A stretch of DNA of 64,000 bases from Myxococcus dinghuensis (GTDB lineage Bacteria; Myxococcota; Myxococcia; Myxococcales; Myxococcaceae). Shown here piece by piece: positions 10,657 to 31,430 of the stretch. Positions within the stretch are counted from its first letter, which is position 1; the number at the start of each line of letters is the position of its first letter. A program made the position numbers and the translations under genes. Where the stretch lies: the NCBI RefSeq assembly GCF_024198235.1, contig NZ_JAKCFB010000011.1, forward strand, positions 124,001 through 188,000, read 5' to 3'. Below the pieces are notes generated by a model. The model was not told where the DNA came from. It did no database searches and worked only from the letters and a program-made list of their open reading frames with translations.

Positions 10657-12102
10657 ATGGTTCCCGAGGCACCCCTCTCCCCCGACTCGCCCGACGTGGC
10701 GCTCGCCGTCGACCTCGACGGGACGCTGGTGCGCACGGACACGCTGCACGAGAGCCTGCTCGTGCTCTTCAAGCGCGCCCCCTGGCTGCTGCTGCTCCTG
10801 CCGCTCTGGGTGCTGAAGGGCAAGGCGTTCTTCAAGGCGGAGGTGTCGCGGCGGGCCACGCTGGACTTCGCGCACCTGCCCTACCACGACGAGCTGCTGG
10901 CCTTCCTGCGCGAGGAGAAGGCGCGGGGCCGCAAGCTGGTGCTGGCCACGGCCGCGGACCAGCGCATCGCGGAGGGCGTGGCGAAGCACCTGGAGCTCTT
11001 CGACGCGGTGTTCGCCAGCGACGGCGTGACGAACCTGTCCGGCGCGCGCAAGCTTTCGCGGCTGCGGGAGGCGCTGGGCACGTTCGACTACGCGGGCAAC
11101 GACGCGGTGGACCTGCCGCTGTGGCAGCAGTCCCAGCGGCTGGTGGTGGTGCACGCGCCGGCGGGGGTGCTCGAGCGGGCGCGGGGCCTGGGCCGGGAGG
11201 TCCACAAGGTCTTCGAGCGCCCGTCCACGGGGGTGCGCACGTGGGTGAAGGCGCTGCGGGTGCACCAGTGGGCGAAGAACGCGCTCGTCTTCGTGCCGCT
11301 GCTGGCCGCGCACAAGGCGGCGTCGGGGGACCTGCTGGCGAAGGCCGGGCTGGGCTTCCTCGCGTTCAGCCTGTGCGCCTCCAGCGTGTACGTGCTCAAC
11401 GACCTGCTGGACCTGGACTCGGACCGGCGGCACCCGTCGAAGAAGAAGCGCCCGTTCGCCGCGTGCGCGCTGCCGGTGAGCACCGGCGTGGTGCTGGCGC
11501 CCGTGCTGCTCGCGGCGGGGGCGGCGGTGTGCGTGCTGCTGCCGTCGAGCTTCGCGGCGCTGCTGGCCACGTACTACGTGCTGACGCTGGCGTACTCGCT
11601 GCGGCTCAAGCAGGTGGTGATGCTGGACGTGCTGGTGCTCGCCGGGCTGTACACGGTGCGCATCTTCGGCGGCTCGCTCGCGGTGGACGTGCCCACGTCG
11701 CGCTGGCTGCTGATGTTCAGCATGTTCCTGTTCCTGTCGCTGGCGCTGGTGAAGCGGCTGAGCGAGGTGCGGCGGCTGCGGCTGTCCAACGAGACGTCCG
11801 CGCACGGGCGCGGCTACCTGGCGCAGGACTACGAGCAGCTCGCCAGCCTGGGCGCGGGCGCCGGCCAGGTGTCCGTGCTGGTGCTGGCGCTCTACATCTC
11901 CTCGAAGGAAGTCACCGTCTACTACGACCACCCGGACCGGCTGTGGCTGCTGTGTCCGGTGATGATCTACTGGGTGGGCCGGGTCTGGGTGCTGGCGCAC
12001 CGGGGCCTCGTGAACGAGGACCCGCTCGTCTTCGCGCTCAAGGACAAGGTGAGCTACGCGGTCGGGCTCGTCTCCGCCCTGGTGCTGTGGGCGGCCACGT
12101 GA
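10657..12102 (+). CDS. HAD phosphatase-UbiA prenyltransferase fusion, DPPR-synthase-like
   Basis: A 481-residue two-domain protein. Residues ~14-200 form a HAD phosphatase-like domain: DLDGT at 19-23, a LATAAD motif, and an acidic motif YAGNDAVD. From about 205 it is a UbiA membrane domain with eight or nine hydrophobic helices and NDLLDLDSDRRHP starting at N248, which matches the Mg/pyrophosphate motif of decaprenyl-phosphate 5-phosphoribosyltransferase (mycobacterial Rv3806c). I chose ATG 10657 over GTG 10603. A DprE1-like and a DprE2-like gene follow directly, so a polyprenyl-phosphoryl-ribose(-P) product is likely. The HAD domain could remove its 5'-phosphate (inference). Confidence 0.82.
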   Translation: MVPEAPLSPDSPDVALAVDLDGTLVRTDTLHESLLVLFKRAPWLLLLLPLWVLKGKAFFKAEVSRRATLDFAHLPYHDELLAFLREEKARGRKLVLATAADQRIAEGVAKHLELFDAVFASDGVTNLSGARKLSRLREALGTFDYAGNDAVDLPLWQQSQRLVVVHAPAGVLERARGLGREVHKVFERPSTGVRTWVKALRVHQWAKNALVFVPLLAAHKAASGDLLAKAGLGFLAFSLCASSVYVLNDLLDLDSDRRHPSKKKRPFAACALPVSTGVVLAPVLLAAGAAVCVLLPSSFAALLATYYVLTLAYSLRLKQVVMLDVLVLAGLYTVRIFGGSLAVDVPTSRWLLMFSMFLFLSLALVKRLSEVRRLRLSNETSAHGRGYLAQDYEQLASLGAGAGQVSVLVLALYISSKEVTVYYDHPDRLWLLCPVMIYWVGRVWVLAHRGLVNEDPLVFALKDKVSYAVGLVSALVLWAAT

Positions 12103-12115
12103 GAGGGCTTGCGAG

Positions 12116-13507
12116 ATGAGGTCACCGGAGTCCTGGGGGCGCTATCCCCGCGTCGAGCAGACCACGCACCCCCTGGTGTGGCGCACGGACGCGCTGCCGT
12201 CCCTGTCCGGGAAGATGCTGCCGCACGGGCTGGGGCGCAGCTACGGCGACTCGTGCCTCAACGCGGGTGGGACGCTGCTGCTGACGTCGGGCCTGGACCG
12301 CTTCATCGCGTTCGACCCGGCCACCGGCGTGGTGCGGTGCGAGGCGGGCGTCACGCTGGACATGATCCTGCGGCTGGCGGTGCCGCGCGGCTGGTTCCTG
12401 CCCGTGACGCCGGGCACCAAGTACGTGACGGTGGGCGGGGCCATCGCCAACGACGTGCATGGCAAGAACCACCACCGGGGCGGGACGTTCGGCCGGTACG
12501 TGCGGCGCTTCGAGCTGGTGCGCTCGGACGGCAGCCGCCGGGTGTGCGCGCCGGACGAGCACGCGGACTGGTACGGCGCGACGATTGGCGGCCTGGGGCT
12601 GACGGGGCTGGTGACGTGGGCGGAGGTGCAGCTCAAGCCCATCCACAACCCGTTCGTGCTCCAGGAGACGGTGCCGTTCGAGAACCTGGACGCGTTCCTG
12701 AAGGTGGCGCGCGAGTCGGAGGCGGACCACGAGTTCACCATGGCGTGGGTGGACTGCCTGGCGCGCGGGAAGAAGGTGGGCCGGGGGCTGCTGTACCGGG
12801 GCAACTTCGCGCCGCCGCAGTTCGACCGGCTGCCCCTGGCCAAGAGCCACCTGTCGCACGGCATCGGGCTGGCGGTGCCCATGGACATGCCGTCGTTCTG
12901 CCTCAACCGGCTGTCGGTGTCGGCGTTCAACTGGCTCTACTACCACCGGCAGAACGGCAAGCCGCAGCAGCGGCTCACGCACTACGACCCGTTCTTCTAT
13001 CCGCTCGACGCCATCTACGGCTGGAACCGCATCTACGGCTCGCGCGGCTTCCTCCAGTTCCAGTGCGTGGTGCCGTACGCCACGGCGCGCGACGCGCTGA
13101 AGGAGATTCTGGAGCGCAGCTCGCGCGGCGGGCTGCCCAGCTTCCTGTCGGTGTTGAAGACGTTCGGGGACGTCCCCTCGCCGGGGTGGATGTCCTTCCC
13201 GCGGCAGGGCGTGACGCTGGCGATGGACTTCGCCAACCGGGGCGAGAAGACCTACCAGCTGGTCGAGGACCTGGACCGGCTGACGCGCGAGGCGGGCGGC
13301 GCGGTGTACCCGGCGAAGGACGCGCGGATGAGCGCGGAGAGCTTCGCGGCGTACTTCCCCCGGCGCGCCGAGTTCGCCGGCTACGTCGACCCCGCCTTCT
13401 CGTCGTCCTTCTGGCGGCGGATGAACCCCGTGAGCCTCCCCTTCTCGTTGGAGGCGGAGCGCGGCGCGGGCGCGCCCCAGCCCCAGTCCGTGCTTGCGCT
13501 TCGCTGA
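12116..13507 (+). CDS. DprE1-like FAD-dependent oxidoreductase
   Basis: A 463-residue VAO-type flavoenzyme. HGLGRSYGD at 37-45 is the FAD pyrophosphate motif and HGKNHH at 115-120 matches the conserved HGKNHH segment of DprE1. DprE1 oxidises C2 of decaprenyl-phosphoryl-ribose to the 2-keto form. No heme or covalent-flavin Cys motif is apparent. The gene starts 13 bp after the UbiA fusion and is followed by an SDR, the same order of chemistry as the mycobacterial arabinan precursor pathway. Substrate identity is by analogy only; other FAD-linked sugar or alcohol oxidases share the fold. Confidence 0.82.
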   Translation: MRSPESWGRYPRVEQTTHPLVWRTDALPSLSGKMLPHGLGRSYGDSCLNAGGTLLLTSGLDRFIAFDPATGVVRCEAGVTLDMILRLAVPRGWFLPVTPGTKYVTVGGAIANDVHGKNHHRGGTFGRYVRRFELVRSDGSRRVCAPDEHADWYGATIGGLGLTGLVTWAEVQLKPIHNPFVLQETVPFENLDAFLKVARESEADHEFTMAWVDCLARGKKVGRGLLYRGNFAPPQFDRLPLAKSHLSHGIGLAVPMDMPSFCLNRLSVSAFNWLYYHRQNGKPQQRLTHYDPFFYPLDAIYGWNRIYGSRGFLQFQCVVPYATARDALKEILERSSRGGLPSFLSVLKTFGDVPSPGWMSFPRQGVTLAMDFANRGEKTYQLVEDLDRLTREAGGAVYPAKDARMSAESFAAYFPRRAEFAGYVDPAFSSSFWRRMNPVSLPFSLEAERGAGAPQPQSVLALR

Positions 13508-13531
13508 CTCCTTTCCGAGATTGCCCTGCCC

Positions 13532-14269
13532 ATGAAGAAAGTGCTCGTCCTCGGCGCCACCAGCGCCATTGCCCAGGCGACGGTGCGGCTGCTCGCCGCG
13601 CGCGGGGCCTCGCTGTACCTCGTCGGCCGCAACGCGGAGAACCTGGAGGCGGTGGCGAGGGACGCGGCCACCCGGGGCGCGGCGAAGGTCGACTCCCAGG
13701 CCGTGGACCTGAACACCTTCGACGCGCACGAGGCGCTGGTGGACGGCGCGTTCCAGTCGCTGGGCGGCTTGGATGGCGTGGTGCTCGCGCACGGCGTGCT
13801 GGGAGACCAGGCGGAGGCGCAGCGCTCGTGGGAGGCGACGGAGGCGGTGCTGCGCACCAACTTCCTGAGCGCGGTGTCGCTGCTGACGGTGCTGGCCAAT
13901 CGCTTCGAGGCGCAGAAGGCCGGCACGCTGGTGGTGATTTCGTCGGTGGCGGGGGACCGGGGCCGGCAGAGCAACTACGTGTACGGCGCGTCCAAGGGCG
14001 CGCTGAACGTGTTCCTCCAGGGCCTGCGCAACCGGCTGGCGAAGTCCAACGTCGCGGTCGTCACGGTGAAGCCCGGCTTCGTGGACACACCGATGACGGC
14101 GCACCTCCCGAAGAACAAGCTCTTCGCATCTCCAGACAAGGTGGCGCGTGGGCTGCTGCGCGCGGCGGACGGACGCAAGAACGAGGTCTACGTCCCCGGC
14201 ATCTGGGCGCTCATCATGCTCATCATCCGGAGCATCCCGGAATCCGTGTTCAAGAAGCTCAAACTGTAG
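13532..14269 (+). CDS. DprE2-like short-chain dehydrogenase/reductase
   Basis: A 245-residue classical SDR: GATSAIA nucleotide-binding motif at the N-terminus and catalytic Tyr151/Lys155 in VYGASKG. In mycobacteria DprE2 reduces the keto intermediate made by DprE1 to give decaprenyl-phosphoryl-arabinose. The C-terminus (ALIMLIIRSIPESVFKKLKL) is hydrophobic then basic, fitting membrane association, as DprE2-type proteins have. The start is ATG 13532, 24 bp after the DprE1-like stop. The function is supported mainly by the neighbours. Confidence 0.8.
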   Translation: MKKVLVLGATSAIAQATVRLLAARGASLYLVGRNAENLEAVARDAATRGAAKVDSQAVDLNTFDAHEALVDGAFQSLGGLDGVVLAHGVLGDQAEAQRSWEATEAVLRTNFLSAVSLLTVLANRFEAQKAGTLVVISSVAGDRGRQSNYVYGASKGALNVFLQGLRNRLAKSNVAVVTVKPGFVDTPMTAHLPKNKLFASPDKVARGLLRAADGRKNEVYVPGIWALIMLIIRSIPESVFKKLKL

Positions 14270-22345: not shown

Positions 22346-23686
22346 ATGTCGACCGCCGCCCCGCTGCATGTCGAACCCGTGCCCCCGCCCGAGCCCGCCG
22401 CGACGCCCGCCGTGCCTCCGGAGCCCGCCCCCTGGCCCCTGGCCGCGCGCATCGCGTTCCGCTTCACCTGCGTGCTCGTGCTCCTCACGTGCTTCCCCTA
22501 CCCGCTCGACAACATCCCGGGCGGCTACACCGTCATCGCGGAGGTCAACTCCTTCTGGAGCACCGTGGTGCCGTGGCTCGTCCTCCACACGACGGGCTTC
22601 GAGGTCACCGAGCCCCCGCTCATCACCGGCAGCGGCGACACCCAGCTCGAGTTCGTCAAGGCGGGCTTCTTCCTCCTCCTGTCGGTGGTGGCGACCCTCG
22701 TCTGGTCCATCCTCGATGCGCGGCGGCCCCGGTATCCGCGGGCGCACCACTTCCTGCGCGTCTACGTCCGGTACGTCCTCGCCGGCGCGATGCTGGGCTA
22801 CGGCTTCGTCAAGCTCTTCCCGTCGCAGTTCCCGCCCATCGGGGAGGAGCGGCTGGCACAGCCCCTGGGCGAATTCTCCCCCATGGGACTGCTGTGGACC
22901 TTCATGGGGTACTCGCTCGGCTACAACATCCTCACCGGCGGCGCGGAGGTCCTGGGCGGCCTGCTGATGTTCTTCCGGCGGACCACCACGCTGGGCGCGC
23001 TGGTCCTCGTCGGGGTGCTGACGAACGTGGTGGCGCTCAACTTCTTCTACGACGTGCCCGTCAAGCTGTACTCCCTGCGGCTGCTGCTGCTCGCGGTGTT
23101 CCTGCTCGCCCCCGACCTGCGGCGGCTCGTCGACGTGCTGGTCCTCAACCGCGCCACCCGCCCCGCGGAGATTCAACGCCCCTTCCACCTGCCCAGGCGC
23201 GTCACCTGGGGCCTGCTCGCCGCGAAGCTGGTCCTCGTGGGCCACTTCATCTACGGCAACGCCATCCAGGGCTGGGGATCGTACCAGCGCTTCCAATCGA
23301 GCGGGCCGCCGCCGGCGCTCATGGGCATCTACGACGTCGAGGGCTTCCATCGCGGAGGACAGGAGCTCGACGGCGGCGAGCGCTGGAGGCGCTTCAGCAT
23401 CAGCCCCTACGGACACGTGCAGATACGCACCGCGGGCAACTCCCGCACGCGCTTCAGCCTCGTCGAGTCCGCCGAGAACAAGACGCTCACCCTCACCGAG
23501 CTATGGGTCGCGGAGCCGAAGCAACTGACGCTCACCTTCGAGAAGCCCGACCCCACGCACCTCGTGCTGCGCGGGGACCAGGAGGGCGCGCCCATCGAGG
23601 TGCACCTGCGCAAGGTGGACACCTCCAACTCCCTGCTCCTGAACCGCGGCTTCCACTGGGTGCAGGAGCAGCCCTTCAACCGCTGA
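22346..23686 (+). CDS. DoxX-like multi-pass membrane protein with soluble C-terminal domain
   Basis: A 446-residue protein. After a Pro-rich N-terminus (~30 residues) there are about six to eight hydrophobic segments between residues 35 and 315, with features of DoxX/HTTM-like proteins (VRYVLAGAMLGYGFVKLFPSQFP; VVALNFFYDVPVKLYS). The last ~120 residues are a soluble beta-rich domain (ERWRRFSISPYGHVQIRTA...). The membrane part is probably inner-membrane. I cannot assign a substrate or reaction. The gene is convergent with the next one, with only 3 bp between stops. Confidence 0.65.
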   Translation: MSTAAPLHVEPVPPPEPAATPAVPPEPAPWPLAARIAFRFTCVLVLLTCFPYPLDNIPGGYTVIAEVNSFWSTVVPWLVLHTTGFEVTEPPLITGSGDTQLEFVKAGFFLLLSVVATLVWSILDARRPRYPRAHHFLRVYVRYVLAGAMLGYGFVKLFPSQFPPIGEERLAQPLGEFSPMGLLWTFMGYSLGYNILTGGAEVLGGLLMFFRRTTTLGALVLVGVLTNVVALNFFYDVPVKLYSLRLLLLAVFLLAPDLRRLVDVLVLNRATRPAEIQRPFHLPRRVTWGLLAAKLVLVGHFIYGNAIQGWGSYQRFQSSGPPPALMGIYDVEGFHRGGQELDGGERWRRFSISPYGHVQIRTAGNSRTRFSLVESAENKTLTLTELWVAEPKQLTLTFEKPDPTHLVLRGDQEGAPIEVHLRKVDTSNSLLLNRGFHWVQEQPFNR

Positions 23687-26656: not shown

Positions 26657-27754
26657 TCACGCCACGACGGAGCGCAGGAGGCGCTCGAACAACCAGGGGC
26701 TCTTCTCCAGCACCTTCACCACCGGACGGCGCAGCCGCGGCCTGCGCGCCAGCGTGAGCAGCGCGCGCGTGGTCCACGCGTACTTGCGGAACACGCCCTG
26801 GAAGGCGTGCTCGTAGGGGCGCAGCGCGTCCACGCCCGCCCCCTTCGCCAGCGCGTCCGGGAGCAGCGTCCCCAGCGACTCCGCGCAGGTGAAGGCCAGC
26901 GACAGCCCCTCGCCCGTCAGCGCGTCCACGTAGCCCGCGGCGTCGCCCACCAGGGCGAAGCGGTCCGCCACCCGCGCGCGCGCCACCCGCGCCAGCGGCC
27001 CCGCGCCCCGCACCTGGGAGTCCGGCGTCATGCCGTGCAGCCGCGCCTCCAGCCGGGGGAAGCGCGCCAGGAGCGTGTCGAAGCCCACGCGGCCCTCCAC
27101 CCCCCCGTCCTCCCACAGGAAGGCCAGGCCCACGCGCCGCGCCCCGGCCGGCGTCACGTACGCCTCCACGCCGCTGGCGAAGTGGACCTCCACGAACGGC
27201 GACCACGGCGCCACCTGGAAGTGCTGGCGCAGCCCGAAGCGACGGGGCACGTCCGCGTCCACCTCCAGGCCCTCGGCCCGCCGCAGCGGCGAGCCCAGCC
27301 CGTCCGCGGCGACCAGCATCCGCGCCTCCACGGGCGCGTCCGCCGTCTCCAGCGACATGCCCTCCGCCGTCCTGCGGTGGGACAGCACCTGCGTGCGCTC
27401 GCGCAGCTCCACGCCCACCGCGCGCGCCCGCGCCACCAGCGCCGAGGCGAGCGCCACCCGCCGCACGCCCAGCCCGCCGGGCTCCGGCAGGCGCCCCTCC
27501 ACCGAGCCTCCGTCCTCCTGCACGTAGCGGATGCCCACGAAGGGCGCGCTCTCGCCGCGGTCCAGGTGCGGCAGCGCGCCCAGCCGCTCCAGCGCGGCCA
27601 GCCCCGGGGGCATGAGGCCCTCGCCACAGGCCTTGTCCGCGGGCACCGTCGCGCGCTCCAGCACCACCGTGTTCAGCCCGCGCGTCGCGGCGTGGATGGC
27701 CACGGCCAGCCCCGCGGGACCGGCCCCCACCACCGCCACGTCGTACCGCCTCAC
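26657..27754 (-). CDS. FAD-dependent oxidoreductase (geranylgeranyl-reductase-like), last gene of type III PKS operon
   Basis: A 365-residue flavoprotein. VVGAGPAGLAVA near the N-terminus binds FAD and GDAAGYVDALTGEGLSLA is the second FAD motif of the geranylgeranyl-reductase/halogenase-like group. It begins with GTG overlapping the upstream ligase stop by 4 bp (GTGA). In Streptomyces srsABC a flavoprotein hydroxylase follows a type III PKS and an ICMT-type methyltransferase, so an equivalent tailoring step (hydroxylation, oxidation or alkene reduction) is plausible here. The exact reaction is not readable from sequence. Confidence 0.83.
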   Translation of the reverse strand: MRRYDVAVVGAGPAGLAVAIHAATRGLNTVVLERATVPADKACGEGLMPPGLAALERLGALPHLDRGESAPFVGIRYVQEDGGSVEGRLPEPGGLGVRRVALASALVARARAVGVELRERTQVLSHRRTAEGMSLETADAPVEARMLVAADGLGSPLRRAEGLEVDADVPRRFGLRQHFQVAPWSPFVEVHFASGVEAYVTPAGARRVGLAFLWEDGGVEGRVGFDTLLARFPRLEARLHGMTPDSQVRGAGPLARVARARVADRFALVGDAAGYVDALTGEGLSLAFTCAESLGTLLPDALAKGAGVDALRPYEHAFQGVFRKYAWTTRALLTLARRPRLRRPVVKVLEKSPWLFERLLRSVVA

Positions 27755-29505
27755 GGCTCCTGCTCCGCCCGGGCCATGGCGAGCGCGCTCTTCGCCATCT
27801 CCACCGCCATGCCCACCATGCCCACCTTCTTCGGCGGCGTCAGCGCGCCCGTCTGGTAGCGCCGCAGCGCCTCGCTCCGGCGCAGCTTGCCGCTCGACGT
27901 GCGCGGCAGCGTCCCGGGCTCCAACAGCCGCACCGTGTGCGCGCGCACGCCCGTCGCCTCCAGCACCGCCGCGCGGATGCGCTCCTCCACGGCCTCCGCC
28001 GCCTCCGGCCCCGAGCGCTCCGCGAGGATGAGCAGCGCCTCGTCCGTCTCGCCCTCCGGGACGAAGCCCAGCGCCACCGCGCAGCCGGTGCGCACGCCGT
28101 CCACGCCGTGCAACGGGTCCTCGAAGGCCTGCGGCGCGTGGTTGGCGCCCCGGATGATGACCACGTCCTTCGCGCGGCCCGTCAGGTACAGCTCCCCGTC
28201 CGCGAGGAAGCCCAGGTCCCCCGTCTCCAGCCAGCCGTCCGTCGTCAGCGCCCGGCGCGTGGCCACCGCGTCGCCGAAGTAGCCCGCCATGAGCGACGGC
28301 CCGCGCGCGAAGACGCGCCCCACCCGCCGCTCCGGCAGCACCACGCCGTCCGCGTCGCGCACCTCCACCTCGAAGCCCGCCACCGGCGAGCCCACGCTCA
28401 CCAGCTCCCGGGTGCCGTCCTCCACCAGCCCCTCGCGCGCGAGCCGCTCCGGGTCCACCCCCAGCCCGCGCGGCCCCCGCGCGGAGGGCGGGAAGGTCAC
28501 CGCCAGCGAGGCCTCGGACAGGCCGTAGACGGGGCGCAGGGCGCGCGGTGAGAAGCCCCACTTCTCGAAGCGCTCGGCGAAGCGCCGCAGCGTCTGGAGG
28601 GACACCGGCTCCGCGCCGTTGAGCGCGTGCTCCCACGACGACAGGTCCACGCCCTGCATCTCCGCGTCCTTCACCCGCTTGAGGCACAGGCCATACGCGA
28701 AGTTGGGCGCGGGCGAGATGGCGCCCCGGTGCCGCGACACCGCGCGCAGCCACAGCGCGGGCCGGGCGAGGAAGACCTCGGGCGGTATCAGCACCAGGTG
28801 CCCGGGGAAGACGAGCGCGGCCAGCAGACAGCCGATGAGGCCCATGTCGTGGTACAGCGGCAGCCAGCTCACGCCCACGCGCGGCCCGCCGGGAGGCAGG
28901 GGCATGGCCACCTCCAGCGCCGCCAGCTGCGCCATCAGCGCGCCGTGGGTCAGCGCCACGGGCTTGGGCGCCACCGTCGACCCGGAGGAGAACTGGATGA
29001 GGCCCAGCGCCTCCGACCGCACCCGCACCTCCAGCGAGTCGTCGCCGCGCGACAGCTCCTCCACCGTGTGGCAGCCCAGCCGGGGCCGCGCGCGCTCCAC
29101 GCTCGGCCCCAACAGCAGCCGCACGCGCGAATCCGTCAGCACCAGCGCCGCCCCCGTCACCTGGAGCATCCGCGCCGTCGCCTGGTGGTACTCCTCCAGC
29201 CGCCCCAGCCGGACCGGCGGATACAGCGGCACCGGCACCGCGCCGGCCAGCAGCGTCCCGAAGAACGCGTCCATGAAGGCGGGCGACGTGGGCAGGAGCA
29301 GCGCCACCCGCTCGCCCTCGCGCACGCCCAGGCGCGCCAGGCCCGCCGCGGTGCGCCGGGCGCGGCGGTAGACGTCCGCCCAGGGCAGCACCTCCTCGCG
29401 CTCCGCCGAGTCCACGAACGTCAGTTGGAAGGACGTCGCGCTCGTCGCCGCGAGCGCCTCGTTCAACGTGGCGTAGCGCGACGCGGGGAGCTGGGGGCCC
29501 CTCAC
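27751..29505 (-). CDS. fatty acyl-AMP ligase (FAAL-type adenylating enzyme)
   Basis: A 584-residue ANL-superfamily enzyme. The P-loop is QFSSGSTVAPKPV, followed by SWLPLYHDMGLIG, YGLSEASLAV, TGDLGFL and a C-terminal lid with GKLRRSEALRRY. The combination LYPP(VRLG), PLYHDMGLIG and RGANHAPQ is typical of FAALs, which make acyl-AMP and hand it to an ACP instead of CoA. GTG 29505 overlaps the ACP stop by 4 bp (GTGA), keeping the two proteins in step. The likely role is loading a fatty acid onto the ACP for the type III PKS. Confidence 0.88.
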   Translation of the reverse strand: MRGPQLPASRYATLNEALAATSATSFQLTFVDSAEREEVLPWADVYRRARRTAAGLARLGVREGERVALLLPTSPAFMDAFFGTLLAGAVPVPLYPPVRLGRLEEYHQATARMLQVTGAALVLTDSRVRLLLGPSVERARPRLGCHTVEELSRGDDSLEVRVRSEALGLIQFSSGSTVAPKPVALTHGALMAQLAALEVAMPLPPGGPRVGVSWLPLYHDMGLIGCLLAALVFPGHLVLIPPEVFLARPALWLRAVSRHRGAISPAPNFAYGLCLKRVKDAEMQGVDLSSWEHALNGAEPVSLQTLRRFAERFEKWGFSPRALRPVYGLSEASLAVTFPPSARGPRGLGVDPERLAREGLVEDGTRELVSVGSPVAGFEVEVRDADGVVLPERRVGRVFARGPSLMAGYFGDAVATRRALTTDGWLETGDLGFLADGELYLTGRAKDVVIIRGANHAPQAFEDPLHGVDGVRTGCAVALGFVPEGETDEALLILAERSGPEAAEAVEERIRAAVLEATGVRAHTVRLLEPGTLPRTSSGKLRRSEALRRYQTGALTPPKKVGMVGMAVEMAKSALAMARAEQEP

Positions 29506-29780
29506 GAGCGGGCCTCCACCGGCGCGCGCGACGGGGCGGCGACGCGGTTGGCCACCAGCCGCACCAGGTCCGCCACCGTCTTCACCTCCTGCGCGTCCTC
29601 CTCCGACAGGCGGATGCGGAAGCGGTTCTCCAGCCCCACCGCCAGCACCGTCAGGCCGAGGCTGTCGAGCTGCAGGTCCCGGAGCAGGTCCTGCTGCGGC
29701 TCCACCGCGCCCTTCCACTCCAGCTCCTCGACGGCGATGCGGCGGATCTCCGCCAGGACCTCCTTCTCGAGCTCAACCAT
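29502..29780 (-). CDS. acyl carrier protein
   Basis: A 92-residue ACP. DLQLDSLGL carries the phosphopantetheine attachment Ser40, flanked by the usual acidic helix. It starts at ATG 29780, inside the 3' end of the methyltransferase gene (8-bp overlap), and its stop overlaps the FAAL start. The placement between PKS and FAAL indicates a carrier dedicated to delivering the acyl starter. It lacks other domains. Confidence 0.9.
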   Translation of the reverse strand: MVELEKEVLAEIRRIAVEELEWKGAVEPQQDLLRDLQLDSLGLTVLAVGLENRFRIRLSEEDAQEVKTVADLVRLVANRVAAPSRAPVEARS

Positions 29781-30348
29781 GCGGCACCTCCGGAATGAAG
29801 CGGGGACGGTGGGAGAACGCTCGCGCGTAGGCCTCACCCAGCGCCGCCTCCTCCGCGCGGATGCGCACGAAGAGCAGCGCCGCGTTGCCCACCGAGAAGA
29901 CGACGGCGGTCCACCACGCGCCGTGGATGAGCGGCACGCAGGCCAGCTCCAGCACCACGGCGACGTAGTTGGGGTGGCGCAGGAAGCGATAGGGCCCGTG
30001 CGTCACCGGCGGCAGGCCCGGCACCGTGATGATGCGCGAGTTCCACCGCGCGCCCAGCGTGGCGATGGCCCAGTAGCGCAGCGCCTGCGCCGTCACCGCG
30101 CCCGCCAGCGCCACCCATCCCCACGTGCCCGGGAACGGCCGGTCCCGGAGGAAGACCTCCGCCACGCACGCGCCCAGGAAGAGCGTGTGGAAGACCACCA
30201 TGAAGCGGTAGTGCGCCTGGCCGGACTCCACGCCCCCCTGCGCGAAGGCGAGCGCCGCGTTGCGCCGGGAGAGCACCAGCTCCACCACCCGCTCCAGCAC
30301 GAGCAGGGCCATGTAGCCCAGGAAGACGGCCTGAGTGGGGGTCACCAT
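29773..30348 (-). CDS. isoprenylcysteine-methyltransferase-type membrane methyltransferase
   Basis: A 191-residue protein with about four or five hydrophobic segments and the ICMT/PEMT C-terminal motif: THGPYRFLRHPNYVAVVLE and FxxRIRAEEAALGEAYARAF. BpsB of Bacillus and SrsB of Streptomyces belong to this family and O-methylate alkylpyrones or alkylresorcinols made by adjacent type III PKSs. The same adjacency here suggests the same chemistry. The ATG at 30348 overlaps the PKS stop by 7 bp. A GTG at 30345 is an alternative start. Confidence 0.85.
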   Translation of the reverse strand: MVTPTQAVFLGYMALLVLERVVELVLSRRNAALAFAQGGVESGQAHYRFMVVFHTLFLGACVAEVFLRDRPFPGTWGWVALAGAVTAQALRYWAIATLGARWNSRIITVPGLPPVTHGPYRFLRHPNYVAVVLELACVPLIHGAWWTAVVFSVGNAALLFVRIRAEEAALGEAYARAFSHRPRFIPEVPHG

Positions 30349-31430
30349 CGCAGGAGCACCATCTCCGCGCAGAAGCCCGGCCCCATGGCCAGCATCAGCC
30401 CCCAGTCCCCCGGCCGCGCGCCGGCCTGCTCCAGCGTCTCCCCCAGCACGAACAGCACGGACGACGACGACAGGTTGCCCACCTCCTGCAGCGAGGCCCA
30501 GGAGCGCGAGAGCGCCGAGGACTCCAGCTCCAGCGCCTCCTCGAAGGCCTGGAGCACGCGGGGCCCGCCGGTGTGCGCCACCCAGTGGCGGATGTCGCTG
30601 CGCCGCAGGCCCTGCTCCACCAGGAAGTCCTCCACGTTGCGGCGCACGTGGTCCTTCACGAGCTGCGGGACCTTGGCGGAGAGGATGACCTTGAAGCCGG
30701 AGTCCACCACGTCCCAGCCCATGATGCGCTCGGTGTCCGGATAGAACACCGAGCGCGAGGCCACCACGCGCGGCCCCTTCGCGCCGGGCACCTCCGCGCC
30801 GCTGAGCACCGCGCACGCCGCGCCGTCACCGAAGAGGCCGGAGGCGATGATGTTGGGGATGGACAGGTCCTCGCGCTGCAGCGTCAGCGAGCACAGCTCC
30901 ACGGAGACGAGCAGCGCGGTGTGCGAGGGGAAGGCGCGCAGGTAGTCCGCCGCGCGCGCCAGCCCCGCCGCGCCCGCCACGCAGCCCAGGCCGAAGATGG
31001 GCGTGCGCTTGAAGTCCTCGCGGAAGCGCAGCAGGTTCGCCAGCCGCGCCTCGACGCTGGGCGTCGCGATGCCCGTCACCGTGACGAAGAAGACGTGGTC
31101 CACGTCCCTCGCCGTCAGCTCCGCGCGCTCCAACGCCTGGCGCACCACCTGCTCGCCGAGCAGCGTGGACTCGCGAATCCACGCGTCGTTGCGCTGCTGG
31201 AAGGTGGCCAGCCCCGGGTAGGCGTCCACGGGCAGCGCCAGGTAGCGGCCCTTCACCTGGACGTTGCGGTGCAGCTCCTCCAGGCGGTCCAGGTTGAAGT
31301 GGCGCGTCGCCCAGACCTCGCGCAGCGCCGCGATGAGCTGCTCCTGCGTGGCGTAGTGGGCGGGCAACGCGCGTCCCACCGCGCGGATGTACGGCAAGCT
31401 GCGGTCGTGGCCAGGGGGGGCACTGTGCAT
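30342..31430 (-). CDS. type III polyketide synthase (chalcone/stilbene synthase family)
   Basis: A 362-residue ketosynthase homodimer-type enzyme with the triad Cys150 (GLGCVAGAAG), His286 (AHTGGP) and Asn319 (VGNLSSSS). It condenses an acyl starter with malonyl-CoA units to give alkylpyrones or alkylresorcinols. First gene of a five-gene operon with methyltransferase, ACP, FAAL and FAD oxidoreductase. The ACP/FAAL neighbours indicate a long fatty-acyl starter transferred from ACP. It is upstream-neighbour to an MXAN_6640-like gene, consistent with M. xanthus order as I recall it. The product is not known. Confidence 0.93.
   Translation of the reverse strand: MHSAPPGHDRSLPYIRAVGRALPAHYATQEQLIAALREVWATRHFNLDRLEELHRNVQVKGRYLALPVDAYPGLATFQQRNDAWIRESTLLGEQVVRQALERAELTARDVDHVFFVTVTGIATPSVEARLANLLRFREDFKRTPIFGLGCVAGAAGLARAADYLRAFPSHTALLVSVELCSLTLQREDLSIPNIIASGLFGDGAACAVLSGAEVPGAKGPRVVASRSVFYPDTERIMGWDVVDSGFKVILSAKVPQLVKDHVRRNVEDFLVEQGLRRSDIRHWVAHTGGPRVLQAFEEALELESSALSRSWASLQEVGNLSSSSVLFVLGETLEQAGARPGDWGLMLAMGPGFCAEMVLLRW

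What the first reader, a model, noticed from the sequence alone, without database searches (positions are those of the whole stretch)
10657..14269. A mycobacterial-type polyprenyl-phosphoryl-arabinose module in a myxobacterium, with a HAD-UbiA fusion
UbiA with the NDxxDxxxDR motif of DPPR synthase, a DprE1-like flavoenzyme and a DprE2-like SDR occur in one row on one strand. The 5'-phosphate step, which in mycobacteria is thought to use a separate phosphatase, could be the fused HAD domain. The product could donate D-arabinofuranose to an exopolysaccharide, LPS or a glycolipid not yet described.
Basis: partly seen in the sequence, partly recalled or inferred. Interest (0 to 1): 0.7.

Follow-up and report, generated by a model that had tools for sequence, protein, structure and literature searches.

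The report
Lipid-linked D-arabinose donor genes, Myxococcus
Three neighbouring genes in a Myxococcus genome very probably make a lipid-carried form of the sugar D-arabinose for the cell surface; this is a known kind of pathway, but the glycan it feeds is not known here, and in a related lineage the built-in phosphatase has decayed while the rest of the pathway was kept.

Summary
Observation confirmed. Window 10657-14269 (+) holds a HAD-UbiA fusion (481 aa), a DprE1-like oxidase (463 aa) and a DprE2-like SDR (245 aa), 13 and 24 bases apart. Each one's best solved-structure match is the mycobacterial decaprenyl-P-arabinose enzyme, far ahead of other families. Ten of eleven mapped Rv3806c substrate-site residues are identical (Q135 is Thr) and the HAD catalytic residues are intact. 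The module most likely makes polyprenyl-P-D-arabinofuranose. The fusion is not new: C. youngae ORF15, of the same architecture, is shown to make polyprenyl-P-ribose from PRPP, and DprE1/E2 homologues are reported in Araf systems (PMC11127046). It is also common: 48 of 80 named loci hold HAD-UbiA, DprE1 and DprE2. New here: the trio is adjacent in all 27 genomes of the window's genus examined. In 11 of 11 genomes of three related genus groups the HAD lacks its motif-IV half (nucleophile Glu in 10 of 11), yet UbiA, DprE2 and a DprE1-like gene remain and the HAD remnant is under purifying selection. In two of these the three genes lie at three separate places, all kept. No flippase or GT was recognised beside the trio in Myxococcus; acceptor and glycan are unknown.

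The parts
10657..12102 (+). HAD-UbiA fusion, predicted polyprenyl-phosphate 5-phosphoribosyltransferase with its own 5'-phosphatase domain (P0001)
   Evidence: PRK08238 644.9 bits; PDB only Rv3806c at E<=1; AF2 model pLDDT 92, UbiA part Z 29.1 to 8j8j
10696..11226 (+). HAD phosphatase domain (residues about 14-190)
   Evidence: Pfam HAD 7.5e-09; VIA Z 16.5 to 3fvv and about 14 to SerB-type phosphatases
10711..10728 (+). HAD motif I DLDGTL (D19 nucleophile, D21 acid/base; roles recalled)
   Evidence: D19 and D21 invariant in the 44-sequence alignment A4
11095..11112 (+). HAD motif IV GNDAVD (D152)
   Evidence: D152 invariant in A4; this part is deleted in the HAD-dead proteins
11233..12099 (+). 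UbiA-fold phosphoribosyltransferase domain (residues 193-481)
11398..11427 (+). NDLLDLDSDR, Mg/PRPP-binding motif (residues 248-257)
   Evidence: N248, D249, D252, D256 invariant in 19 sequences and in 148 rows
12116..13507 (+). DprE1-like polyprenyl-P-ribose 2-oxidase (P0002)
   Evidence: DprE1 E 5.1e-77; Y43, H115, K117, Q314, Q316, K401 conserved in nine DprE1-like proteins; the C387 position is Ala
13532..14269 (+). DprE2-like 2-keto reductase (P0003)
   Evidence: only PDB hit at E<=1e-20 is DprE2; NCBIfam DprE2 199 bits, second to PRK07102
9515..10561 (+). O-methyltransferase upstream: conserved neighbour inside the family, judged not part of the module
   Evidence: not at this position in Corallococcus loci L096-L098

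Best explanation
The operon makes polyprenyl-phosphoryl-beta-D-arabinofuranose. The UbiA domain transfers 5-phosphoribose from PRPP to undecaprenyl (polyprenyl) phosphate. The fused HAD domain removes the 5'-phosphate. The DprE1-like FAD enzyme oxidises C2 and the DprE2-like SDR reduces it to the arabino configuration. A flippase and a GT-C enzyme encoded elsewhere then use the donor on the periplasmic side to put D-arabinofuranose on an envelope glycan or protein. Inferred here from homology: all steps. Shown by others: the first two on C. youngae ORF15, a protein of the same architecture. Not shown: lipid chain, flippase, GT and acceptor.
For: Best matches of all three proteins to the mycobacterial pathway, far ahead of other families. 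Rv3806c residues R22, K28, Y70, N73, D77, K87, R90, Y138, K143, Y157 (PMC10994848 section 10), mapped by the alignment, are identical as R201, K207, Y245, N248, D252, K262, R265, Y313, K318, Y332; Q135 is T310. Model: Z 29.1 to Rv3806c against 21.8 for the best other UbiA. HAD D19, D21, T98, K132, D152 invariant in 44 fusions. Linkage: trio adjacent in 27 of 27 genomes of the genus (coordinates); 48 of 80 named loci hold both DprE genes, 39 of the 70 outside Myxococcaceae. Where the trio is dispersed (G045, G048) all three genes are still present. In another family of the order (G038, L033) an intact trio lies among Pfam-supported glycosyltransferases (groups 1, 2), an asparagine synthase and a PF00953 polyprenyl-P sugar-1-P transferase-type protein, as in a polysaccharide locus. 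Biochemistry of ORF15: PMC11127046 section 7.
Against: No flippase or GT was recognised beside the trio in the Myxococcus loci seen with wide flanks (window, L094, L095, L102). The GT-C family found next to DprE genes in other phyla matched 8 of 145 genomes of the order, none in the window's genus (only 9 of 29 candidates in G000 were scored). No report of D-arabinose in a myxobacterial glycan appeared in the listings and passages I saw. 26 of 80 loci have HAD-UbiA with neither DprE gene (some cut by contig ends), so the fusion alone does not mean arabinose. In 14 of 70 distinct UbiA proteins of the order the HAD is not intact and 10 more are unfused, so the fused phosphatase is not needed everywhere.
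Confidence: 0.85

Rival explanations
1. The module makes lipid-linked ribofuranose (or another epimer such as xylofuranose) rather than arabinofuranose, as in C. youngae O1/O2.
For: HAD-UbiA with neither DprE gene in 26 of 80 loci; ORF15 makes the ribose form and an SDR epimerase of another type is linked to xylose in O2 (PMC11127046, sections and passages).
Against: DprE1 and DprE2 homologues directly follow in one operon and keep the checked DprE1 residues; PMC11127046 reports DprE1/E2 homologues in its Araf candidate systems.
Confidence: 0.1
2. An aromatic (quinone-type) UbiA prenyltransferase with unrelated neighbours.
For: Pfam UbiA family match and general UbiA fold.
Against: The K/R pyrophosphate cluster and 5'-phosphate residues of Rv3806c are conserved in all 148 rows apart from changes at T310 and Y332; no aromatic UbiA among PDB hits at E<=1; repeated linkage to DprE1/DprE2.
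Confidence: 0.02
3. The donor feeds a small glycolipid or natural product rather than a polysaccharide or glycoprotein; the locus is stand-alone in Myxococcus.
For: No polysaccharide genes recognised at the locus in Myxococcus. In Archangium-type genomes a type III PKS, a small protein and an AMP-ligase follow the locus.
Against: The PKS-type set stays with DprE1 in G045/G048 although UbiA and DprE2 lie elsewhere, so it looks like plain synteny; in L033 the intact trio is in a polysaccharide-type locus.
Confidence: 0.15

Closest known systems
HAD(PRP)-UbiA polyprenyl phosphoribofuranose synthase, Citrobacter youngae O1 ORF15 (PMC11127046); NCBIfam NF006088/PRK08238
   Same: Same domain order (HAD first); catalytic Asp in HAD loop I and the N/D residues of the NDxxDxxxD motif as the paper describes; P0001 is far above the PRK08238 cut-off.
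   Different: ORF15 sits in an O-antigen locus with a MATE flippase and a GT136 GT-C and no DprE genes are described there; here DprE1/DprE2 follow and no GT or flippase was recognised.
Mycobacterial decaprenyl-P-arabinose pathway (Rv3806c, Rv3807c, DprE1, DprE2)
   Same: Homologous UbiA, DprE1 and DprE2; substrate pocket nearly identical.
   Different: 5'-phosphatase fused and of the HAD type instead of the separate unrelated Rv3807c (PMC11127046); Q135 is Thr; the DprE1 C387 position is Ala; all three below the NCBIfam equivalog cut-offs.
Pseudomonas paraeruginosa D-Araf pilin glycosylation with TfpW (PMC12369383, passages)
   Same: A Gram-negative D-Araf pathway with a ubiA gene, according to the papers.
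   Different: According to PMC11127046 the PA7 enzyme has no PRP domain, and in P. syringae B728a the domain is C-terminal. Not compared by sequence here.

Membership tests
HAD-UbiA PPPRS (PRK08238 / ORF15 type) | N-terminal HAD plus C-terminal UbiA, score above family cut-off | tested here: met
   644.9 bits against cut-off 351, residues 11-481; both domains above Pfam cut-offs
HAD-UbiA PPPRS (PRK08238 / ORF15 type) | Intact HAD catalytic residues | tested here: met
   D19, D21, T98, K132, D152 present
HAD-UbiA PPPRS (PRK08238 / ORF15 type) | PRPP-dependent transfer to polyprenyl-P and 5'-dephosphorylation | not testable with these tools
   needs a membrane assay; shown by others for ORF15
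Decaprenyl-P phosphoribosyltransferase (Rv3806c type) | Conserved PRPP/Mg residues | tested here: met
   10 of 11 mapped residues identical, Q135 is T310
Decaprenyl-P phosphoribosyltransferase (Rv3806c type) | NCBIfam equivalog cut-off (NF008976/7/8) | tested here: not met
   152.9 of 207, 144.6 of 234, 124.2 of 474 bits: homologue, not filed as this equivalog
DprE1 | FAD_binding_4 fold with DprE1 active-site residues | tested here: met
   E 5.1e-77 to 4aut; Y, H, K, Q, Q, K conserved; roles of these residues recalled
DprE1 | NCBIfam NF053785 cut-off | tested here: not met
   366.3 of 500 bits: divergent homologue
DprE2 | Closest solved SDR is DprE2, aligned to the C-terminal tail | tested here: met
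   only PDB hit at E<=1e-20, residues 3-244 of 245
DprE2 | NCBIfam NF053786 cut-off | tested here: not met
   199 of 250 bits; best model is PRK07102, 318.9 against 267
Three-component pentofuranose glycosylation system | Linked flippase and GT-C | tested here: not met
   none recognised beside the trio in the window or in L094, L095, L102; unlinked PMT_2, GT87 and GtrA-type genes exist
Aromatic UbiA/MenA prenyltransferase | Closer to other UbiA structures than to Rv3806c | tested here: not met
   Z 29.1 to 8j8j against 21.8 to 4tq4; sequence hits only to Rv3806c at E<=1

The most novel reading that the evidence does not exclude
D-arabinofuranose is a core envelope sugar of Myxococcaceae, not yet described. 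In the Archangium-type clade the phosphatase half of the fusion has become a conserved, catalytically dead domain kept for structure or regulation. The pathway there either borrows an unlinked phosphatase or, more boldly, carries a 5'-phosphorylated pentose through epimerisation and transfer. In three of these genomes a distant DprE1 relative may have displaced the native one.
Probability: 0.35. Interest if true: 0.55.

Novelty: new member of a known kind. Interest (0 to 1): 0.35.

Why it matters
It predicts a D-arabinose-containing surface glycan in a model group for social motility and predation, where the HAD-UbiA gene has one match per genome and the trio is adjacent in all 27 genomes of the genus examined, so single deletions would test it. 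The loss of the fused phosphatase in a related clade gives a natural experiment on whether 5'-dephosphorylation must be coupled to the transferase. The fusion itself and the pathway logic are already published.

Tried and rejected
Finding the arabinosyltransferase. GT-C-like proteins next to UbiA or the trio in other taxa were used as probes. L041 protein (no Pfam match, GT-C-like by eye) against G000: no match, with no positive control. The A3 family (11 related proteins, nine aligned; the four tested have no Pfam match) against 145 genomes of the order: 8 of 145, none in the window's genus; three of the eight (G047, G075, G081) carry the module, but each is the only one of its genus group to match. 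L034 PMT_2-type protein (24.7 bits, cut-off 26.1): 14 of 145, none in the window's genus. Both searches scored only part of the first-look candidates, so absence is not proven. G000 has 9 PMT_2 matches (7 over the cut-off) and 3 GT87 matches, one place shared, none in the window; the best GT87 (L072:9263-10459) is nearest in PDB to a mannosyltransferase, so none was chosen. GtrA: 2 matches in G000, one over the cut-off, not followed.

Polysaccharide context. L034 and L041 (UbiA near GT1, ABC2_membrane, sub-cut-off PMT_2 and sub-cut-off Wzy_C proteins) were first taken as support, but both have a non-intact HAD and no DprE genes in the stretch fetched; only L033 has the intact trio in such a locus.

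Upstream methyltransferase as a fourth member: rejected, because it is not at that position in Corallococcus loci. Type III PKS set as a partner: treated as synteny. A membrane protein without Pfam match (window 22346-23686; 49% and 47% relatives follow the trio in L102 and L094) was looked at as a possible GT and not taken as one.

Second phosphatase in HAD-dead genomes: a search with the HAD part (180 aa) in 21 genomes found one match each, the fused gene, in the 18 that matched. An unrelated phosphatase would not have been seen. A separate HAD gene upstream of an unfused UbiA-DprE1-DprE2 set in G143 (L191_10) is a lead only.

Bias and limits: the 80 named loci are the best of at least 584 relatives, found with patterns from eight Myxococcota proteins and ranked by match to P0001, so 70 of 70 intact HADs outside Myxococcota is biased towards intact fusions. 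In one search six loci were missed by my gene caller; one search replaces that count and looks anywhere in the fetched locus. The tree is a quick one with 63 rows chosen from 148, SH-aLRT support only, and Rv3806c is not in it. L041 and L034 come from fragmentary assemblies. dN/dS pairs are not independent. Model of the HAD-dead protein: 13 rows, mean pLDDT 73.

Papers: PMC11127046 (outline, sections 5, 7, 12 read, other passages), PMC10994848 (section 10, passages), PMC12369383, PMC7484181, PMC12802240, PMC7310880, PMC10412643 (passages); all others only in search listings. 'Not in print' for a myxobacterial Araf module or D-Ara glycan rests in an open-licence library only. I recall, without a source seen here, that old composition analyses of Myxococcus LPS list arabinose. 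DprE1 residue roles (Y60, H132, K134, Q334, Q336, C387, K418) and HAD motif roles are recalled.
Full report
What is there. Between 10657 and 14269 on the + strand lie three genes with gaps of 13 and 24 bases: a HAD-UbiA fusion, a DprE1-like FAD oxidase and a DprE2-like SDR. Pfam, NCBIfam and PDB searches agree on each. The fusion is PRK08238 (644.9 bits, cut-off 351), and its only PDB matches at E<=1 are Rv3806c. The second matches DprE1 at 5.1e-77 with the next family at 4.5e-12. The third has one PDB match at E<=1e-20, DprE2. The NCBIfam models named for the mycobacterial enzymes are matched below their cut-offs, so these are divergent homologues.

Active sites. By the alignment and the residue roles in PMC10994848 (section 10), ten of eleven PRPP or Mg residues of Rv3806c are identical in P0001; Q135 is T310. 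In 148 rows the 13 columns tabulated vary only at T310 and Y332. The HAD residues D19, D21, T98, K132 and D152 are invariant in 44 fused proteins. DprE1 residues Y43, H115, K117, Q314, Q316 and K401 are present; the position of Cys387 is Ala (roles recalled). An AlphaFold model (pLDDT 92) puts the membrane domain nearest to Rv3806c (Z 29.1, rmsd 2.6 over 283) ahead of A. fulgidus UbiA (Z 21.8, rmsd 3.0 over 255), and the HAD domain nearest to 3fvv (Z 16.5, rmsd 3.3 over 172) with phosphoserine phosphatases at about 14.

Prior knowledge. PMC11127046 (sections 5, 7 and 12 read) shows that C. youngae ORF15, a HAD(PRP)-UbiA protein, makes farnesyl-P-ribose from PRPP. Its D18A variant gives the 5-phospho product with a small amount of dephosphorylated product. 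The authors also report DprE1/E2 homologues in candidate Araf systems.

Spread. Of these 80 loci, 53 hold a DprE1 and 49 a DprE2, 48 hold both, 46 in the order UbiA-DprE1-DprE2 within 300 bp, and 26 hold neither (some cut by contig ends). In ten loci of other phyla a protein of one family lies directly upstream of the UbiA; the two tested in Pfam are LPG_synthase_TM; a profile of the ten also hit two more loci, one of them not upstream. It is a flippase candidate. A GT-C-like family follows the DprE genes in others.

In the order. P0001 matches in 121 of 145 genomes, P0002 in 140 of 145 (weak ones are other oxidases), P0003 at 1e-30 in 114 of 145. In all 27 genomes of the window's genus (G000, G095-G120) the three are adjacent by their coordinates. 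The upstream methyltransferase is a neighbour in several genera but not in Corallococcus. In G038, of another family, the intact trio lies among glycosyltransferases, an asparagine synthase and a PF00953 protein (L033), which is the best hint here that the donor serves a polysaccharide.

The unexpected part. The motif IV columns are gaps in all 11 and the nucleophile Asp is Glu in 10 of 11; G047 keeps Asp. L034, L041 and L031 are further non-intact cases (L031 by D19 to G, the other columns kept). Among 140 distinct proteins, 14 are not intact and 10 unfused, all in this order; 46 in the order and 70 of 70 elsewhere are intact, with a selection bias towards full-length matches. On a UbiA-only quick tree of 63 rows the state 'dead' needs 4 changes, at least 2 forced by starred branches, and the ten Archangium-type rows form one group (SH-aLRT 92, not starred) inside relatives that are mostly intact. 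Six unfused UbiA (L045-L050) branch apart with full support, while four unfused ones (L042, L043, L044, L093) lie inside the fused group. The remnant (residues 14-121) has dN/dS 0.12-0.40 in 8 pairs of the dead clade, against 0.19-0.60 in 9 intact pairs. A model of one dead protein (mean pLDDT 73) gives residues 11-120 block means of 72-88 and lacks two of the six strands of the intact domain, with a third shortened. No second copy of the HAD was detected. The UbiA columns are conserved in these proteins too.

Gene shuffling in the same clade. In G045 and G048 the three genes lie at three separate places and all are kept. In G044 and G046 the DprE1 gene is missing between HAD-UbiA and DprE2, and in G043 the coordinates leave no room for it. 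These three are the only g3 genomes listed with a distant DprE1 relative of over 200 bits (34-38% identity; the same active-site residues in the two examined); the other three have at most 46-49 bit second matches. Only part of the candidates was scored, so the displacement is a suggestion.

Reading. Best explanation: a polyprenyl-P-D-arabinofuranose operon, ordinary in kind, conserved in its genus, with an unlinked and unidentified flippase, GT and acceptor. The evidence for arabinose rather than ribose is the DprE1/DprE2 pair. The evidence for a surface glycan is indirect, from a locus in another family. What would interest a specialist is the loss of the built-in phosphatase while the rest of the pathway and the HAD remnant are maintained.

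Noticed in passing
L035, L036, L037, L074-L078, L082-L084: HAD half of the HAD-UbiA fusion has lost motif IV (and in 10 of 11 the nucleophile) in Archangium-type genomes while the remnant stays under purifying selection.
   Followed up: yes
L075, L077, L182-L184: DprE1 gene missing between HAD-UbiA and DprE2 in Archangium-type genomes; the same genomes carry a distant stand-alone DprE1-like gene.
   Followed up: partly
L192:6775-7658: A second, fragmentary copy of the DprE1-DprE2 end of the operon in genome G118 of the same genus.
   Followed up: no
L110, L123, L124, L126, L133, L137, L141, L154, L155, L159, L166: GT-C-like family with a WDxW...NEHR pattern near DprE1/DprE2; no Pfam match for the four tested (L110, L123, L124, L159); candidate arabinosyltransferase.
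   Followed up: partly
L105, L107, L120, L122, L128, L132, L161, L165, L168, L169: A protein of one family (LPG_synthase_TM in the two tested) directly upstream of HAD-UbiA; candidate flippase for the lipid-linked pentose.
   Followed up: partly
L095: Record titled Comamonas sp. KCTC 72670 has the contig length (336135) of genome G107 of the window's genus; apparently a mislabelled Myxococcus assembly.
   Followed up: no
window 26657-31430 (-): Type III PKS-like synthase, methyltransferase-like protein, small carrier-like protein, AMP-ligase and FAD oxidoreductase in a row (Pfam for three of the five); a PKS and AMP-ligase set also follows the arabinose locus in Archangium-type genomes.
   Followed up: no
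window 22346-23686 (+): Membrane protein without Pfam match; relatives (47-49%) lie just downstream of the trio in two other Myxococcus loci (L094, L102).
   Followed up: partly
L191:7890-8591: Separate HAD hydrolase gene upstream of an unfused UbiA-DprE1-DprE2 set in G143.
   Followed up: partly
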